This document shows, piece after piece, positions 18,883 to 51,523 of a stretch of 64,000 bases of DNA; the first letter of the stretch is position 1, and the number at the start of each line of letters is the position of its first letter. This DNA comes from Eubacteriaceae bacterium (GTDB lineage Bacteria > Bacillota > Clostridia > Peptostreptococcales > Anaerovoracaceae). The notes beneath the pieces were generated by a model. It was given only the letters and a program-made list of their open reading frames with translations, did no database searches and was not told the origin of the DNA. Made by a program: the position numbers and the translations under genes. The DNA lies in the NCBI GenBank assembly GCA_902362805.1, contig CABIXY010000007.1, positions 62,001 to 126,000 of the forward strand. The letters run 5' to 3'.

Positions 18883-19011
18883 AATGATTAAGACCTTACG
18901 TTTCCTCTTATATACAAATATTTCCACATATCATTTGTTTGCATTTACCAATATATCGTATAATTCCCCTTCTGTCAATGCCGACAGCCCGTATCTATGG
19001 ATAAGATTTTT

Positions 19012-19050
19012 TACAAAAAAGTCCGTACAAAGAGGTAAGATTGTACGGAC
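19012..19050 (-). terminator. Terminator of the folate operon
   Basis: A 10-bp perfect stem GTCCGTACAA/TTGTACGGAC (19021-19050) followed on the minus strand by TTTTTTGTAA. It lies about 50 bp after the folBK stop. Confidence 0.88.
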
Positions 19051-19099
19051 TGCTGTCATCTCATATTCGCTTTTTTAATTTTTTCTTCAGGCAATACGC

Positions 19100-19921
19100 T
19101 CATTTTAGGTCGTCTAATAATTCTTTGACGGTCTTGCCCAACCCCGGATGTCTGACCCATGGCGCAATCTGAGCCAAAGGCTCCAGCACAAAATCCCGCA
19201 GATGCATTTCGACATGCGGAATCATCAGGTTCTCGCTCTCATAAATCAAATCATCGTATAGCAAAATATCCAAATCCAAGGTTCTCGGACCCCAGTGTAC
19301 CTCCCTCTTGCGATGAGCGGTTCCTTCAATTCCATGGAGTGCAGAGAGCAATTCCTCCGGGGTTAACAACGTGGAAATTTGTACACAGCCGTTGAGAAAA
19401 TCGTCCTGCTCCACGCCGCCATAAGGCGCTGTAGTAATATAGTCGGACACCCGCTCTACCTTACAATCCTCCATTTTGTTCAGTTCTTCTACTGCCATAT
19501 CCAGAAATGCCTTTTTATCCCCAATATTAGAACCCAGGGCAACATATGCCTGATGCCAAAATCTCTCGATTTTCACTGATACGGTATCCAGCGGCAGTGC
19601 CACCGGCGCCCAGGGTTTTTTCAGTTCCACAGAAACGCCTTTTAGGAGGGGAAAGGTAAGCAGCAATTCCTCTGCCAAATGTTCCGCCGCTGCCTCGATA
19701 AGTTTATAAGTATGTTCTTGCAAAAAACGGGTGATGAAGTGGCTGACACTGCCATAATCTATGGATAAATTCAAATCATCCTTCTGTCCGGCCTTTTTCG
19801 TATCCACATACATGATGATAGAAACCAAAAACTTCTGTCCCAGTTTTGTCTCTTCTGGAAACACACCGTGATTAGCAAAGATTTGCAGGTTTTCTATGCG
19901 AATTTCATCATATTTTTTCAT
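19100..19921 (-). CDS. folK: Bifunctional dihydroneopterin aldolase / HPPK (FolB-FolK fusion)
   Basis: A 273-residue fusion. Residues ~1-120 are FolB (ENLQIFANHGVFPEE, with the conserved YGSV and LIEAAAEHLAEEL blocks), which cleaves dihydroneopterin. Residues ~125-273 are FolK (YVALGSNIGDKKAFL and GPRTLDLDILLYDD), which pyrophosphorylates 6-hydroxymethyl-dihydropterin. Joining consecutive steps in one chain is frequent in Clostridia. The ATG has GGAGG upstream and overlaps the folP end by 14 nt. Last gene of the folate operon. Confidence 0.95.
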   Translation of the reverse strand: MKKYDEIRIENLQIFANHGVFPEETKLGQKFLVSIIMYVDTKKAGQKDDLNLSIDYGSVSHFITRFLQEHTYKLIEAAAEHLAEELLLTFPLLKGVSVELKKPWAPVALPLDTVSVKIERFWHQAYVALGSNIGDKKAFLDMAVEELNKMEDCKVERVSDYITTAPYGGVEQDDFLNGCVQISTLLTPEELLSALHGIEGTAHRKREVHWGPRTLDLDILLYDDLIYESENLMIPHVEMHLRDFVLEPLAQIAPWVRHPGLGKTVKELLDDLK

Positions 19922-46268: not shown

Positions 46269-46304
46269 GTAGTTACTTGGCGGCAGCCGCTGACCGCCGC
46301 TGTA

Positions 46305-46575
46305 CAATAAGGTTAGGTTTTTTGGCGGTTGCAGACAAATCTCGCGTAACCTTTACTTCCAAATGATGGATATTGGTTATTTTTCCTAGAGAATTTGGCA
46401 TATTTGTCCTAATAAAATTGGCGAAAAGTAACTCGTTTACTGATTTTACCACATCTCAACGCAGAAAAAGACCAGGTGCTCCGAAAAATCGACGCCGCCT
46501 GGTCTTTTTTCTTCTTAAAATCCTTTTCAGTTACGCGAGTAACGCTCCAGGAGCCCAAAAAACCTAACTCTATTG
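46305..46575. mobile_element. MITE-like TIR element, copy 1 (271 bp)
   Basis: Bounded by TA dinucleotides (46303-46304, 46576-46577). The left end CAATAAGGTTAGGTTTTTTG and the complement of the right end CAATAGAGTTAGGTTTTTTG are near-identical terminal inverted repeats. GCGTAAC/GTTACGC repeats lie exactly 40-46 bases in from each end. No coding capacity. TA flanks and inverted repeats suggest mobilisation by an IS630/Tc1-mariner-type transposase (inference). A second copy lies at 51178-51449. It abuts the stop codon of the next gene. Confidence 0.75.
46465..46510 (+). terminator. Terminator-like hairpin inside MITE copy 1
   Basis: AAAAAGACCAGG (46465-46476) pairs with CCTGGTCTTTTTT (46498-46510), ending in a U-run on the plus strand. 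It may serve as the terminator of the ABC exporter gene. Confidence 0.7.
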
Positions 46576-46581
46576 TACAAA

Positions 46582-47367
46582 TCACAGACAGTAGTCATCA
46601 ATGAGTTTTCCGATGTCCAGAGTGTTGATCCGTCCATCCAAGTCATCGCAGGTGAATAATATGTCATCGTAGAGTCTGTATCCATTGGAAAAATACAGCT
46701 CCATCTTCTCCAGAGCATCATTCCGATACTTCTCATCTACAAGGAGGCCCAAGTGCTCCAAAAGTAGAAACTTGTTCTGGCTCTTCACATAAATTCGAAA
46801 ATCCGGTGGGATCGTTCTCCCTCCAACATCTATTTCCTCCTCATAATGATATTCTATGTTTTTTACAAACAGCATGTTGGCAATTAACCCTTCTGACTTG
46901 GATCTAACCTTCTCTCCTTTTAAGGTCTTGTGCTTCAACCCTGCGGGAAATCCTTTGTATTTACGATATGGCATATTACCCCATTTTTTACTGTTATGAA
47001 TTCCCGACATAGAAAAACAGCATTCCGGCGGCGTCTTATAGGCCCTCGTTTCTTCTGCCATGACCTCCTCGGGGTCTACACTTTTATATCTTTTCAGCAG
47101 TTGCTCCATCAATGCACAATTTTGATCAATGCGTTTCACAGAGTTCTCGATGAATCTGCGCTTCTGCAATTGTGCTACTTCTTTACAATCAGCCCTCCCT
47201 ATGTATGTTTTCTTTCCATCTAAAACCTTATAGTAGTAAGTTTGGTTCTTGATGATCGAGGTAGACAATCCCCCTGCAGGGAGCCCTCGCAGCTGCTGCA
47301 TATACTTTTTTCGCAGCAAATGCTGAAAGGCCAGATCTTCTTTTACATATAAATTGCTATTATACAT
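46582..47367 (-). CDS. PD-(D/E)XK-nuclease-like protein
   Basis: About 261 residues. The ATG at 47373 touches its AGGAGG site, so I take the second ATG, 47367, which has 6-nt spacing. The C-terminal part reads VRSKSEGLIANMLFVKNI... then RTIPPDFRIYVKSQNKFLLL and EHLGLL, which fits the E...PDF...(L)EHLG core of VSR/DUF559-like PD-(D/E)XK nucleases (SE, PDF, EHLG). The N-terminal ~130 residues are helical and basic. Possibly a nucleic-acid-handling protein; no methylase or partner is adjacent. Its stop is two bases from the MITE right flank. Confidence 0.7.
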   Translation of the reverse strand: MYNSNLYVKEDLAFQHLLRKKYMQQLRGLPAGGLSTSIIKNQTYYYKVLDGKKTYIGRADCKEVAQLQKRRFIENSVKRIDQNCALMEQLLKRYKSVDPEEVMAEETRAYKTPPECCFSMSGIHNSKKWGNMPYRKYKGFPAGLKHKTLKGEKVRSKSEGLIANMLFVKNIEYHYEEEIDVGGRTIPPDFRIYVKSQNKFLLLEHLGLLVDEKYRNDALEKMELYFSNGYRLYDDILFTCDDLDGRINTLDIGKLIDDYCL

Positions 47368-47424
47368 CTCCATCCTCCTTTTCCATTATTTTACATTAGA
47401 TGTATGGGGAATACAATAGCAATC

Positions 47425-47463
47425 AAAAACTCTGCAAATCTAATAAATAAATTGCAGAGTTTT
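47425..47463 (-). terminator. Terminator after the MBL-fold gene
   Basis: A 12-bp perfect stem AAAACTCTGCAA/TTGCAGAGTTTT (47426-47463) followed on the minus strand by TTTGATTG, just after the hydrolase stop. Confidence 0.85.
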
Positions 47464-47471
47464 GATCTCTT

Positions 47472-48386
47472 TTACTTCAAATGCGACGTATTATAGACGA
47501 TGGAAAATCCGTCGCAAGGATATTCACTGATTGTTTTTCCATCTTCTAAATAGGTATGACCGACAGCGACCTCTCTCTCCCCTGCTGTTTCGCCATGGAG
47601 GATATGCGCCAGTCCATCAGCTGTTTCCTGCAGCTTATGCCAGTCAGCAATAAAGTCATTGTGGGAGCAGTACAGTTTTACGTCTTGTGGAATCGCTGCA
47701 GTGAGACGTTTCATGGTCTCATAATATTGCTGCAGATTTCCGTGGCCGAATTCAGCGCAGTCAAAGTGGGCGTAGAGCGCCCCCAGATAGAAGGTATCCC
47801 CTGTAAAAAGAATCTTATTGGCCTCATCGTAGAGCATGATGCAGTCGTTACTGTGTCCCGGTGTATGTAATACCTGTATTTTGCGATCACCCAGATCAAA
47901 TTCTTCGCCGTCTGCAACGAATTCTGTTTCATAAGGTCTGATGTAAAAATTCTCCGCATCCAGGGTCTGCGGGTAACCGAACTGAAACATCTCTTCGTCT
48001 AATTGGGCGCCCAGAGCCTCCTTTGGCAGACCATTTTCAGCCACATGCTTTACAGAATCATCTTCAAAGACGTGAATCGGTTGAAACTCATGATTGGAGG
48101 CAATATGGTCGAAATGGAAGTGACTGTTGAAGGTGATAATTTCTCCATCATACAGCTCTTCAATCAGAGGTCTGATCGGGCAAAAGCCTTCACCAGTATC
48201 CAGCAGCAGCGCGTAGCTTTCTCCCATGATGAGAAAGAAGTTTACCTCCTGGAAATGCTGGGGTTCACAGATGGCATATACGTTTTTCGGCAGCTTGTAA
48301 ACCTGATACCATCCACAGTCATTCTGTACCTGGACTCTTTCATACTTTTGATAATATTCTCTTGGATAATTCTTTAACCACGTCAT
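47472..48386 (-). CDS. MBL-fold metallo-hydrolase
   Basis: A 304-residue metallo-beta-lactamase-fold enzyme. The zinc motif NSHFHFDHIASNHEF (HxHxDH, about residues 91-105), the second-ligand block LHTPGHSNDCIML and the bridging Asp in LFTGDTFYLGA are intact, with a C-terminal YCSHND supplying the last His. These hydrolyse thioesters, lactones, phosphoesters or act as oxidoreductases; no lid or flavodoxin domain is present that would narrow it. Ribosome site AAGGAGAG; monocistronic. Confidence 0.92.
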   Translation of the reverse strand: MTWLKNYPREYYQKYERVQVQNDCGWYQVYKLPKNVYAICEPQHFQEVNFFLIMGESYALLLDTGEGFCPIRPLIEELYDGEIITFNSHFHFDHIASNHEFQPIHVFEDDSVKHVAENGLPKEALGAQLDEEMFQFGYPQTLDAENFYIRPYETEFVADGEEFDLGDRKIQVLHTPGHSNDCIMLYDEANKILFTGDTFYLGALYAHFDCAEFGHGNLQQYYETMKRLTAAIPQDVKLYCSHNDFIADWHKLQETADGLAHILHGETAGEREVAVGHTYLEDGKTISEYPCDGFSIVYNTSHLK

Positions 48387-48423
48387 AATTCATCTCTCCT
48401 TAAAATTATTGTCATCAACTCTC

Positions 48424-48454
48424 AAAAATAACAGCAAGGCTTTTGCCTTGCTGT
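48424..48454 (-). terminator. Terminator of ilvA
   Basis: A 10-bp perfect stem ACAGCAAGGC/GCCTTGCTGT with a TTTT loop (48431-48454), followed on the minus strand by TATTTTTGAG. Confidence 0.9.
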
Positions 48455-48461
48455 AAAATAA

Positions 48462-49673
48462 TTAAATCATGACGCTGATCAGTTTCGGATCGTACCCGAT
48501 CTTCTTCAGTGCTTTGATGATTTTGTCTTTGTGTTCTGTTCCAAAAGACTCCATGGTGATCTTCAGTTCCACCGCCGCATTTCTGTTGGTGCTGACGAAC
48601 TGATTGTGATCCAGTCTGATGACATTACCCTGCTCCTGAGCAATGGTATTTGCAACTCTTACCAGTTCACCCGGTTTATCCGGCAGCAATACTGAGATGG
48701 TAAAGATTCTGTCTCTCTGAATCAGCCCGTGCTGCACGACGGAAGACATGGTGATGATATCCATGTTCCCTCCGCTGAGAATAGATACGACTTTCTTGTC
48801 CTTGACTTTCAGATGCTTCAGCGCTGCCACAGTCAGCAGGCCGGAGTTCTCGACCACCATCTTGTGATTCTCTACCATATCCAGAAAAGCAACAATCAAC
48901 TCGTCATCGTCCACTGTGATGATGTCGTCGATACTTTTCTGTAAGTATGGGAAAATTTCAACGCCTGGTGTCTTTACTGCAGTACCGTCAGCAATGGTGT
49001 TGACACCATCCAAGGTTACAGGCTTACCTGCCTCCAAGGATGCCTGCAGACAGGCCGCTCCCGCCGGTTCTACAGCGATGATTTTGATCTTCGGGTTGAG
49101 CATCTTTGCTAAAGTGGAAACCCCCGTTGCCAGGCCGCCGCCGCCCACTGGAACCAGAATGTAGTCTACCAGCGGCAGTTCTTTGACGATTTCCATAGCG
49201 ATGGTGCCCTGCCCGGTAGCAACCACAGGATCGTCGAAAGGATGAATAAAAGTATAGCCTTTTTCTTCGGCCAGCTTCTGTGCATAAGCGGCGGATTCGT
49301 CGTAGACGTCACCGTAAAGCACTACTTCTGCGCCATAACTCTTGGTTCTGTTCACCTTCATCAAAGGTGTCGTCGTCGGCATTACGATGGTTGCCTTGCA
49401 GCCATAAGCTTTTGCCGCATAAGCCACACCCTGCGCATGATTTCCGGCAGAGGCTGTAATCAATCCCTTCGCTCTCTCCTCGTCAGTCAGAGTGCTGATC
49501 TTGTAATAAGCTCCTCTCAGCTTATATGCGCCTGTCTTCTGCATGTTCTCAGGCTTCAAATATACTTTATTTCCAGTCTGTTCACTGAAATAGTCACTAT
49601 ATAGCAAATTCGTCTCTATGGCAACTTTTTTCACCACCTCGGTGGCTTCTTCAAATGCATCTAAAGTTAACAT
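48462..49673 (-). CDS. ilvA: Threonine ammonia-lyase (catabolic or biosynthetic)
   Basis: A 403-residue fold-type II PLP enzyme that deaminates threonine to 2-oxobutyrate. The PLP lysine lies in ENMQKTGAYKLRGAYYKI (KLRGA), the phosphate-binding loop is GGGGLATG, and SAGNHAQGVAYAA is the family signature. The C-terminal ~80 residues (ISVLLPDKPGELVRVANTI...) form a single ACT domain, so allosteric control is expected. The length lies between the anaerobic TdcB type (no ACT) and the two-domain IlvA, as in the short Clostridial/Thermotoga form. In an amino-acid fermenter a catabolic role is as likely as isoleucine synthesis. Confidence 0.93.
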   Translation of the reverse strand: MLTLDAFEEATEVVKKVAIETNLLYSDYFSEQTGNKVYLKPENMQKTGAYKLRGAYYKISTLTDEERAKGLITASAGNHAQGVAYAAKAYGCKATIVMPTTTPLMKVNRTKSYGAEVVLYGDVYDESAAYAQKLAEEKGYTFIHPFDDPVVATGQGTIAMEIVKELPLVDYILVPVGGGGLATGVSTLAKMLNPKIKIIAVEPAGAACLQASLEAGKPVTLDGVNTIADGTAVKTPGVEIFPYLQKSIDDIITVDDDELIVAFLDMVENHKMVVENSGLLTVAALKHLKVKDKKVVSILSGGNMDIITMSSVVQHGLIQRDRIFTISVLLPDKPGELVRVANTIAQEQGNVIRLDHNQFVSTNRNAAVELKITMESFGTEHKDKIIKALKKIGYDPKLISVMI

Positions 49674-49741
49674 ATGTTTTTTCCTTTCCTATGTAAATCT
49701 TACTTTTCATTTTACCACAAAAGCATAGAAAATGATAGTCG

Positions 49742-50746
49742 TCACCGATACATATACGCCGTCTTTTCAAAGGAATACATCAGTTTTTTGTAGATAGGCA
49801 AAAGCTGCTTGCTGGATACGGGTACCCCTCCATATCCAGTCTCGATACAGACATAAGGAACCCGATATTCATTGATGACATAATGCTCCAAATCGCCGTA
49901 GGTAGCCCTGGTATAGCTCTCGTCGATCAAATAATACCCGGTCATCTGCTTGAACAGCTTTGCCAAAGCATAGCTCTTTGACTTGTAAGATTTATTCTTG
50001 TATCCCCAATAGATGACTTGTCCCATGCTGTGATAGTTCAGGCAGGCCTTCATGTTGGTCATGGACTTCATCAGATCGCGGACGGCTTTCGTCTCACTTT
50101 CCGAAAACCTGGACGGCCCTGGATAGTTATCACTGGCAGGCTTCCTCTGTGGGTGTTTTCCGGCATACATCTTGTAATTATGATTCAGATCCACGCCTCT
50201 GGCATTGGACTTCCAATTGCTGTAGCCGCCTCTCCTCGGCATCTTCTGCACTTTTTTGCGGAGCGCTGCATTTCTGATCGCGCCGGCTCCTGACTGGCTG
50301 ATGGCGATACCGTCAGGATTGACCATCGGTATGATGTAGACAGCGACTTCATCAAAGAGTTGGCGATAGGTTTTCCCCTTATATTTACCGCCATAGTTTC
50401 GGCAGTAGCGTTCCAACATCATCATCACAACCTGGCAGTTGATGTATTCGCGAGCATGCATTCCCGCTGTAACAAAGATCTGCTTCTCCGCCTCTGGATT
50501 TCCCAGGCAGAGAGCGTAGATGTTTCTGCCGTCGGCGCTCTCTCCCAGAACCTGGCTGGTCAGCCTGTCCGGATACTTGGCCGTCAGCTGCTCAATATCC
50601 TTCCTCATATCCGAATAGCTGTATTTCTTGTCGCTGCGGCTGACGATGTAGGATGTGGCGGCCGAAATCGGCTGTGAGATTGCCGTCATTATCGTCAGGA
50701 AAACAATCAAAATCACTGCAATCCTTCCTTTGCTGCTCGTGTTCAT
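49742..50746 (-). CDS. Secreted M14 zinc carboxypeptidase
   Basis: A 334-residue protein with an N-terminal signal peptide (about 1-30, cleavage after SAA). Carboxypeptidase A/T features: zinc ligands in AGMHAREYINCQ (HxxE, about 94-97) and a later His in CLNYHSMGQVIYW; Arg/Asn substrate-binding RGVDLNHNY; catalytic Glu in CIETGYGG (near residue 299). It probably trims extracellular peptides or peptidoglycan stem peptides (gamma-D-glutamyl-diamino acid type). Followed by a 13-bp gap from the cupin gene upstream on the same strand. Confidence 0.92.
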   Translation of the reverse strand: MNTSSKGRIAVILIVFLTIMTAISQPISAATSYIVSRSDKKYSYSDMRKDIEQLTAKYPDRLTSQVLGESADGRNIYALCLGNPEAEKQIFVTAGMHAREYINCQVVMMMLERYCRNYGGKYKGKTYRQLFDEVAVYIIPMVNPDGIAISQSGAGAIRNAALRKKVQKMPRRGGYSNWKSNARGVDLNHNYKMYAGKHPQRKPASDNYPGPSRFSESETKAVRDLMKSMTNMKACLNYHSMGQVIYWGYKNKSYKSKSYALAKLFKQMTGYYLIDESYTRATYGDLEHYVINEYRVPYVCIETGYGGVPVSSKQLLPIYKKLMYSFEKTAYMYR

Positions 50747-50759
50747 TATCTGCCCTCCC

Positions 50760-51089
50760 CTACTGCTCCGGCACTACAGCAAAGAAAATTAAATCTCTAT
50801 CGCTGTCATTGATCAAGCTGTGTTCATAGCCTTTGGGACAGTAATGGCACAGACCAGCCTCTACTTCTTCATAATTCCCATCAAAAAGGGCCTTTCCCCT
50901 TCCTTCTAAAATATAGATGATTTCGCTGCTAGTATCATGGGTGTGAAGACCGATAGATGCGCCTGGTTCCAGCTTTCCGCGCATGATTTTACAGGCTGGC
51001 TCCACAAACATCCTGGACCTGGTTTCCTTTTCGCCGCCACGGAAGTGAGGAATTATCGTTTCCTCTATTTGATCAAAATTAATTAGCAT
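50760..51089 (-). CDS. Single-domain cupin protein
   Basis: About 109 residues from the ATG at 51089 (AGAGG 8 nt upstream). A small beta-barrel cupin: GASIGLHTHDTSSEIIYILE supplies GxHxHxxxxE (metal ligands), and a second motif follows with CHYCPKGYEHSLIN. Function (isomerase, dioxygenase or sensor) is open. It precedes the M14 gene by 13 bp and is followed upstream by MITE copy 2. Confidence 0.9.
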   Translation of the reverse strand: MLINFDQIEETIIPHFRGGEKETRSRMFVEPACKIMRGKLEPGASIGLHTHDTSSEIIYILEGRGKALFDGNYEEVEAGLCHYCPKGYEHSLINDSDRDLIFFAVVPEQ

Positions 51090-51177
51090 GACTAGTACCT
51101 CTTTCTTAATTTCATATATTACCAGTGTAAATTCAATGTCTGATTTTGTCAAATAGAACTATTAAAGAAACTCTTTA

Positions 51178-51449
51178 CGATAAGGTTACGCTTTTTGAGC
51201 ACTTGCAGCCAGGTTCGCGTAACCAGTCTATTTCCTGACAGAAAAATGAGGGGGTATATCTGGTTTCGGTTACTTTTCGTATCAATTTATCGATTTCTTT
51301 TACTCCTGAACATTAAAAAAAGTAACCATATGTAATATTTTTACAAATATTTGTCAGAGGCATGCTGCTTTTCAACAGAATGGACCCAAAAACTGCCGTA
51401 AAGTTACGCAGAGTCTTTAGGATAGACGTCAAAAAGCCTAACCTCATTG
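51178..51449. mobile_element. MITE-like TIR element, copy 2 (272 bp)
   Basis: Flanked by TA (51176-51177, 51450-51451). Left end CGATAAGGTTACGCTTTTTG and right-end complement CAATGAGGTTAGGCTTTTTG are inverted repeats closely related to those of copy 1. GCGTAAC (51217-51223) and GTTACGC (51403-51409) sit 40-41 bases from the ends, as in copy 1. An additional inner stem GGTTACTTTT/AAAAGTAACC (51268-51277, 51318-51327) is present. The interior has otherwise diverged. No coding capacity; bases just outside also show weak inverted symmetry (AAAGAAACTC...AAGTTCTTT). Confidence 0.75.
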
Positions 51450-51523
51450 TAAGAAGTTCTTTCATCATACCCCCATACCCTATATGTACTGTTCCTGTCA
51501 GGGTTTGAGCTATGATAAAACTA

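What the first reader, a model, noticed from the sequence alone, without database searches (positions are those of the whole stretch)
46305..51449. Two diverged ~271-bp TIR elements with TA flanks: a MITE family without a visible transposase
Copies at 46305-46575 (271 bp) and 51178-51449 (272 bp) share ~20-bp terminal inverted repeats (consensus CRATRAGGTTASGYTTTTTG, R = A/G and S = C/G, with copy 1 slightly different) and TA at each flank. Both also carry a GCGTAAC/GTTACGC pair placed 40, 40, 40 and 41 bases from the four ends. The interiors have otherwise drifted apart, so the conserved part is the ends and the fold. TA target sites point to IS630/Tc1-mariner-type mobilisation, while the conserved internal repeat spacing suggests a selected RNA or DNA hairpin.
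Basis: seen in the sequence. Interest (0 to 1): 0.75.

Follow-up and report, generated by a model that had tools for sequence, protein, structure and literature searches.

The report
Mobile DNA element with fixed protein-site spacing
The two repeats belong to a family of small mobile DNA elements, about thirty full copies strong in the gut bacterium Emergencia timonensis, whose short motifs keep fixed distances that change only by whole turns of the DNA helix, as if they were landing pads for a protein complex that the cell may have put to use.

Summary
The window comes from a sister lineage of Emergencia timonensis (83-86% nucleotide identity). E. timonensis holds 31 full and 7 partial or weak places of this family; no credible match was found in the 12 other genus genomes or 348 other family genomes (limited sensitivity). 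The inverted-repeat segment plus a right flank is a ~310-330 bp core of eight boxes. Spacer sequence varies but spacer length is nearly fixed, except one spacer of 72, 82-84 or 93-94 bp: steps of one helical turn. Covariation is negligible, so a protein-binding DNA scaffold fits better than an RNA. Some copies lie in ~440 bp units flanked by direct repeats of about 23-30 bp (4 of 10 testable copies); TA/IS630 mobilisation is not supported. No IS630 or rve transposase domain was found in E. timonensis. At copy 2, boxes differ from the ortholog at 7 of 105 positions, other positions at 75 of 235. Best reading: a non-autonomous mobile element whose nucleoprotein core is kept for a host role. The binding protein and that role are unknown.

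The parts
51176..51197 (+).
51215..51224 (+). Copy 2, box 2L (TCGCGTAACC), inverted to 1L, 34 bp away
51250..51262 (+). Copy 2, box G5 (GGGGGTATATCTG)
51267..51279 (+). Copy 2, box 3L (CGGTTACTTTTCG)
   Evidence: altered in the E. timonensis ortholog
51318..51327 (+). Copy 2, box 3R (AAAAGTAACC), 53 bp from 3L
51328..51401 (+). Copy 2, variable spacer 3R-2R: 82 bp anchor to anchor here; 72, 82-84 or 93-94 in the family
51402..51411 (+). Copy 2, box 2R (AGTTACGCAG)
51430..51451 (+). Copy 2, box 1R (CAAAAAGCCTAACCTCATTGTA)
51466..51486 (+).
51173..51489 (+). Copy 2 whole core (model R1 match, 193.8 bits)
46303..46577 (.). Copy 1, odd member: boxes 1, 2, 3, 3', 2', 1' with spacings 34/30/52/103/36; no G5 or C5 seen; total length as in most copies
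46344..46350 (+). Copy 1, box 2 (GCGTAAC)
46375..46384 (+). Copy 1, box 3 (GGTTATTTTT)
46424..46432 (+). Copy 1, box 3' (AAAAGTAAC)
46530..46536 (-). Copy 1, box 2' (GTTACGC)
46465..46509 (.). Copy 1 interior: inverted AAAAAGACCAGG/CCTGGTCTTTTT, terminator-like to the eye, between convergent genes; not flagged by the terminator scan

Best explanation
A non-autonomous mobile DNA element of the E. timonensis lineage. Full units are about 440 bp, with imperfect outer ends (TCTGCTTC... / ...GCATCACA) and target duplications of about 23-30 bp. Inside lies a ~310-330 bp core: three inverted pairs of an RGTTAC site (A: 1L/2L, B: 3L/3R, C: 2R/1R) and two GGGGGTAT sites (G5, C5). How it works (inferred): protein subunits bind the sites and bridge A, B and C into one looped complex, so spacer sequence is free but spacer length is held and may change only by whole helical turns. 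The transposase that spread the copies was probably supplied in trans and was not found in E. timonensis. In long-resident copies the core is still conserved in place, so it most likely now serves the cell, perhaps in local gene control or chromosome architecture. Shown: copy number, boxes, spacing, long direct repeats, constraint at two orthologous loci. Inferred: protein complex, trans transposase, host role.
For: 31 full and 7 partial or weak places in E. timonensis, 0 in the 12 other genus genomes; of 349 family genomes only E. timonensis and one chance-like hit inside a gene. Direct repeats at both termini in 4 of the 10 copies with a recognisable right end: local scores 16, 18, 25, 29, against at most 14 in 110 mismatched pairs (an 11th row, L093, is no copy). 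3R-2R spacing 72 (2), 82-84 (16), 93-94 (10) in the 28 of 33 rows with well-matched boxes; totals 1L-1R of all 33 rows 245-247 (3), 255-258 (20), 266-268 (10); spacers only 48-57% identical. Four parsimony changes of this class, and copy 1 has its middle pair moved by 20-21 bp with the total kept. Negligible covariation. In-place constraint: copy 2 boxes 7/105 against 75/235 other positions (p 1e-7), with 38% of 1102 four-fold sites different; copy 1 arms 6/115, interior 25/160.
Against: Only two orthologous loci and one species pair support in-place constraint; box 3L of copy 2 is altered in E. timonensis. Four-fold divergence varies from 21% to 43% between the seven well-framed genes. No direct repeat above background in 6 of 10 testable copies; the L065 repeat is A-rich; the right outer end was recognised in 10 of 30 copies. 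The whole-turn argument rests on about five events, and deep branches of the copy tree are weak. The site filled in E. timonensis and lacking in the window is not a clean empty site. No binding protein, transposase or transcript was identified.
Confidence: 0.6

Rival explanations
1. A plain MITE: the boxes are only the docking sites of a (now missing) transposase, and the copies have no use for the host.
For: Long direct repeats, dispersal next to mostly unrelated genes, lineage restriction; IS1202-family elements carry extra transposase sites near their ends (PMC10132070, abstract and passages read).
Against: Boxes stay conserved at resident, orthologous copies while 38% of four-fold sites diverged; boxes persist in copies whose right outer end is not recognisable (20 of 30).
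Confidence: 0.28
2. A structured RNA or hairpin element (three-hairpin RNA, terminator or attenuator).
For: Nested inverted repeats; copy 1 folds far better than shuffles (z -7.45), copy 2 less so (z -3.47); RNAalifold pairs the three box pairs and 5 of its 25 pairs have a both-sided change in some sequence; copy 1 lies between convergent genes.
Against: Covariation term only -0.07; of the 200 strongest covarying column pairs 9 are >80% pairable, against a 9% background; no Rfam hit to the core (window at gathering; 8 loci at E up to 1); length changes by helical turns.
Confidence: 0.06
3. A non-mobile host site (nucleoid or regulatory) with fixed copies; the direct repeats are accidental.
For: In-place constraint; 8 of 20 genes whose 5' end faces the left end are transcription regulators, against 2 of 30 background genes.
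Against: Not found in the 12 other genus genomes; long direct repeats at the same termini in four copies.
Confidence: 0.04
4. One reading: an IS630/Tc1-mariner MITE with TA target sites.
For: TA at all four ends in the window.
Against: TA on both sides in 23 of 30 copies only; conserved sequence outside it; long direct repeats at other termini; no DDE_3 domain found in E. timonensis.
Confidence: 0.02

Closest known systems
Bacterial MITEs in general, e.g. Correia elements with an IHF site (review PMC10969869, passages read)
   Same: Short, non-coding, dispersed, no transposase; a MITE can carry a site for a DNA-bending protein that acts on a neighbouring gene
   Different: Eight boxes with nearly fixed, helically phased spacing; direct repeats of about 23-30 bp (a 2-bp TA for Correia elements is from memory); conservation of the core in place
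IS1202 family, long-duplication subgroup (PMC10132070, abstract and passages read)
   Same: Duplications of 16-28 bp; imperfect ends of about 24 bp; TGT...ACA tips and extra internal transposase sites are described there for the ISAjo2 type
   Different: No transposase gene; outer ends match at only 15 of 23 positions and the left one begins TCT; no rve domain found in E. timonensis; no sequence relation shown
Tn7-type ends (TnsB sites)
   Same: Several protein sites per end; ACAATAAAGT also occurs in Tn7 ends (from memory)
   Different: Sites are inverted pairs and not direct repeats; no Tns proteins seen; no 5-bp duplication (Tn7 details from memory)
Phased multi-site operators and silencers with DNA loops (general knowledge, no call)
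   Same: Site spacing tolerated only in whole helical turns
   Different: Here spread as dozens of copies by a mobile element

Membership tests
IS630/Tc1-mariner MITE | TA target duplication directly outside the inverted repeats | tested here: not met
   TA both sides in 23 of 30; homology continues outside; direct repeats of about 23-30 bp elsewhere
IS630/Tc1-mariner MITE | IS630-type transposase with the same ends in the genome | tested here: not met
   PF13358: 0 matches in E. timonensis. The window's own genome is not held
MITE (non-autonomous transposon) | Multi-copy, short, no coding capacity, inverted ends | tested here: met
   10 of 30 cores overlap an ORF of 90-158 aa that I took as spurious without a test
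MITE (non-autonomous transposon) | Target site duplication | tested here: met
   4 of 10 testable copies; 6 of 10 show none above background
MITE (non-autonomous transposon) | Autonomous partner with the same ends | tested here: not met
   Inner end pattern (one spacing, 3 mismatches): 50 of 53 matches lie in known copies, 3 look like chance. Outer end pattern: 11 of 20 matches lie in known copies (6 control matches); of the other 9 one was looked at and lies in a gene. Only one E. timonensis genome examined
IS1202 family derivative | Long (16-28 bp) duplications | tested here: met
   against PMC10132070
IS1202 family derivative | ~24 bp imperfect TIR with TGT/ACA tips | tested here: inconclusive
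   15 of 23 matches between consensus ends, right tip TGT, left tip TCT
IS1202 family derivative | TnsB-like rve-domain transposase | tested here: not met
   PF00665: 0 matches in E. timonensis; no IS1202 transposase sequence itself was used as query
Structured non-coding RNA | Compensatory base changes | tested here: not met
   no Rfam family over the core
Invertible promoter switch | Both orientations of the segment relative to fixed outer sequence | tested here: not met
   The 20 cores aligned have the same orientation relative to box C5

The most novel reading that the evidence does not exclude
A mobile element has distributed a helically phased, eight-site nucleoprotein scaffold over one bacterial lineage, and the host has taken it over as a genome-wide regulatory or architectural site, kept by selection copy by copy after mobility was lost.
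Probability: 0.33. Interest if true: 0.8.

Novelty: new variant of a known kind. Interest (0 to 1): 0.62.

Why it matters
Bacterial MITEs are usually described by ends and hairpins. Here sequence alone seems to report the architecture of a protein-DNA complex: spacers free in sequence, nearly fixed in length, changed by whole turns. With about thirty natural variants in a culturable gut commensal, it is a ready system for asking how selfish repeats become host regulatory sites. It also adds a case of long target duplications without a known transposase in Clostridia.

Tried and rejected
RNA structure: consensus fold, covariation scan, Rfam at gathering (window) and E-value thresholds (8 loci): nothing for the core. 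Coding potential: the C arm can be read as a short peptide, but 1-nt indels break the frame (by eye). Autonomous partner by solitary inner ends, outer end, rve (57) and IS630 (78) domains: none found. Viral contigs: 0 matches. Pattern scan of genome contigs: 14 of 16 stretches are E. timonensis; the two others (L004, L014) hold single arms and look like chance. The family search scored only four candidates per genome with strict filters, and the genus search at most 128 per genome, so weak relatives could be missed; the one other family hit lies inside a coding gene. Other direct repeats do not fit the termini: L060 (17 bp), L055 (13 bp), L074 (11 bp).

Earlier mistakes: minus-strand loci were not turned; both were redone and nothing from them is used. 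In one search the regex misplaced inner boxes of copy 1 and L077; copy 1 was re-measured, L077 was not. In one search one of eight genes (the cupin, 24 four-fold sites) was read out of frame and is in the total. In one search one of 11 rows (L093) later proved no copy. Rows left out: Wc1, Wc2, L075 and L080 from the reference profile; Wc1, L080, L077, L070 and L075 from the spacing tree; Wc1, Wc2, L080, L077 and L070 from the segment table; Wc1 and L080 from the covariation scan. The background Pfam tally shows only 25 of 131 families and was replaced by 30 randomly chosen proteins of 99 eligible.
Full report
WHAT IS THERE. The window's genome is not held. A pattern built from the ends, run over genome contigs, returned 16 stretches, 14 of them in Emergencia timonensis SN18 (Anaerovoracaceae). 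The window aligns to that genome at 83-86% nucleotide identity around both copies, so it comes from a sister lineage. A sequence-only model of 20 copies finds in E. timonensis 30 full cores, the odd copy 1 locus, and 7 partial or weak places, and nothing in the 12 other genomes of its genus (128 candidates scored per genome). Among 349 family genomes (the genus may be among them) only E. timonensis and one hit inside a gene of another genome came up (four candidates scored per genome). 400 kb of other E. timonensis DNA gave no hit at E up to 0.01.

ANATOMY. Aligned copies show eight boxes: 1L (TACRATAARGTTASGYTTTTTG), 2L (CGCGTAACC), G5 (GGGGGTATATCTG), 3L (CGGTTACTTTT), 3R (AAAAGTAACC), 2R (GTTACGCGA), 1R (CAAAAARCCTAACYTTATYGTA) and C5 (CATACCCCCWNCCCTATATG). 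The six RGTTAC boxes form three inverted pairs. Mean box identity is 75-87% and mean spacer identity 48-57% among 27 copies (random 26%; the 4-nt G5-3L spacer was not scored). Spacer lengths hardly vary: 1L-2L 34 (26) or 35 (4); 2L-G5 31-33; G5-3L 18 in 23 of 25 (one 17, one 21); 3L-3R 52-54; 2R-1R 36 or 37; 1R-C5 26-28. The exception, 3R-2R, is 72 (2 copies), 82-84 (16) or 93-94 (10) in the 28 of 33 rows with well-matched boxes; the total 1L-1R of all 33 rows is 245-247 (3), 255-258 (20) or 266-268 (10). On a tree of 27 copies the 3R-2R classes need four changes. Copy 1, with an otherwise different interior, keeps the total but has its middle pair moved: 34/30/52/103/36 against the usual 34/51/53/83/36. 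If such changes were uniform between 2 and 25 bp, five within 1 bp of a multiple of 10.5 would occur with probability 4e-4; this is a rough null.

NOT LIKELY AN RNA. RNAalifold pairs boxes 1L-2L, 3L-3R and G5-C5, but its covariation term is only -0.07, and 5 of 25 pairs show a both-sided change in some sequence. Among the 200 highest covarying pairs 9 are more than 80% pairable, against 9% of all pairs. No Rfam family covers the core. Single-copy folds are stable for copy 1 (z -7.45) and less so for copy 2 (z -3.47), as inverted repeats must give.

MOBILITY. In a subfamily, homology extends about 59 bp left of the core. A right end TTTTCAAAARYGCATCACA lies 19-42 bp beyond the core in 10 of 30 copies. 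Together this makes units of about 440 bp (added up by hand). Next to these termini lie direct repeats: L071, L080, L052, and a weaker, A-rich one at L065. Local alignment of own flanks scores 25, 29, 18 and 16; mismatched flanks reach at most 14 in 110 pairs; 4 of 10 testable copies show it, the other six score 6-10. So TA is not the target. One site (L056) is filled in E. timonensis and lacks the element in the window at 18981-19103; that gap also differs by a Clostridiales-2 RNA, so it is not a clean empty site. No solitary inner ends, and no rve or IS630 domain, were found in E. timonensis.

CONSTRAINT IN PLACE. Both window copies have orthologs at the same loci in E. timonensis. For copy 2, positions conserved in 28 other copies differ at 7 of 105, other positions at 75 of 235 (Fisher p 1e-7). 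Four-fold degenerate sites of eight nearby genes differ at 38% of 1102, with 21-43% in the seven genes read in frame, so the spacers drift almost freely and the boxes do not. Against this, box 3L of copy 2 is altered in E. timonensis. Copy 1 differs at 6 of 115 arm and 25 of 160 interior positions. The divergence of copy 2's spacers argues against gene conversion (inference).

SURROUNDINGS. Each of the 30 full cores has an ORF of at least 100 aa on either side and none of these covers it; 10 cores overlap a shorter ORF of 90-158 aa that I took as spurious, untested. Neighbours are mixed metabolic genes and regulators (60 proteins). Of 20 genes whose 5' end faces the left end, 8 are transcription regulators, against 2 of 30 background genes (one-sided p 0.006, two-sided 0.009, post hoc); at the right end it is 2 of 14, and both ends together 10 of 34 (one-sided p 0.02). 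For copy 2, a TTGACA-17-TACACT promoter-like site of the cupin gene begins 20-25 bp outside the core; the scan as a whole found 13 such sites where 10.5 are expected.

JUDGEMENT. Mobile origin: likely. A protein-binding, helically phased core: likely. Host role: plausible, from two loci. The closest described features are those of the IS1202 family (duplications of 16-28 bp; TGT/ACA tips and internal sites in the ISAjo2 type; PMC10132070, abstract and passages read), but membership is not shown. Literature searches on E. timonensis (10 of 34 titles seen), MITEs (12 of 23; 10 of 223), TnsB-type miniatures (2 of 2) and helical phasing (6 of 63) listed no title describing this family; only listings were seen there.

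Noticed in passing
L056:1358-1437 (E. timonensis), window 18981-19103: Rfam Clostridiales-2 RNA (RF02937, E 1e-13) sits beside an element copy in E. timonensis; the window's matching intergenic region is much shorter (about 120 against 590 bp) and the window gave no Rfam hit at gathering.
   Followed up: partly
L065, L066, L067 (E. timonensis): Three short GntR-family regulator genes each have their 5' end facing the left end of an element at 116-163 bp; regulators look enriched at left ends (8 of 20 against 2 of 30 background).
   Followed up: partly
window 46465-46509: Copy 1 carries an inner inverted AAAAAGACCAGG/CCTGGTCTTTTT between convergent genes, which may act as a two-way terminator (by eye; not flagged).
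   Followed up: no
L061:2005-3231 (E. timonensis): A Mutator-type (IS256-like) transposase gene starts 187 bp beyond an element copy; its ends were not examined.
   Followed up: no
L060 (E. timonensis): A 17-bp exact direct repeat flanks this copy at positions that differ from the other repeats.
   Followed up: no
window 48407-48424 against G001:C9:1412876-1429823: About 17 kb lies in E. timonensis between two blocks that adjoin in the window: an insertion there or a deletion in the window lineage.
   Followed up: no
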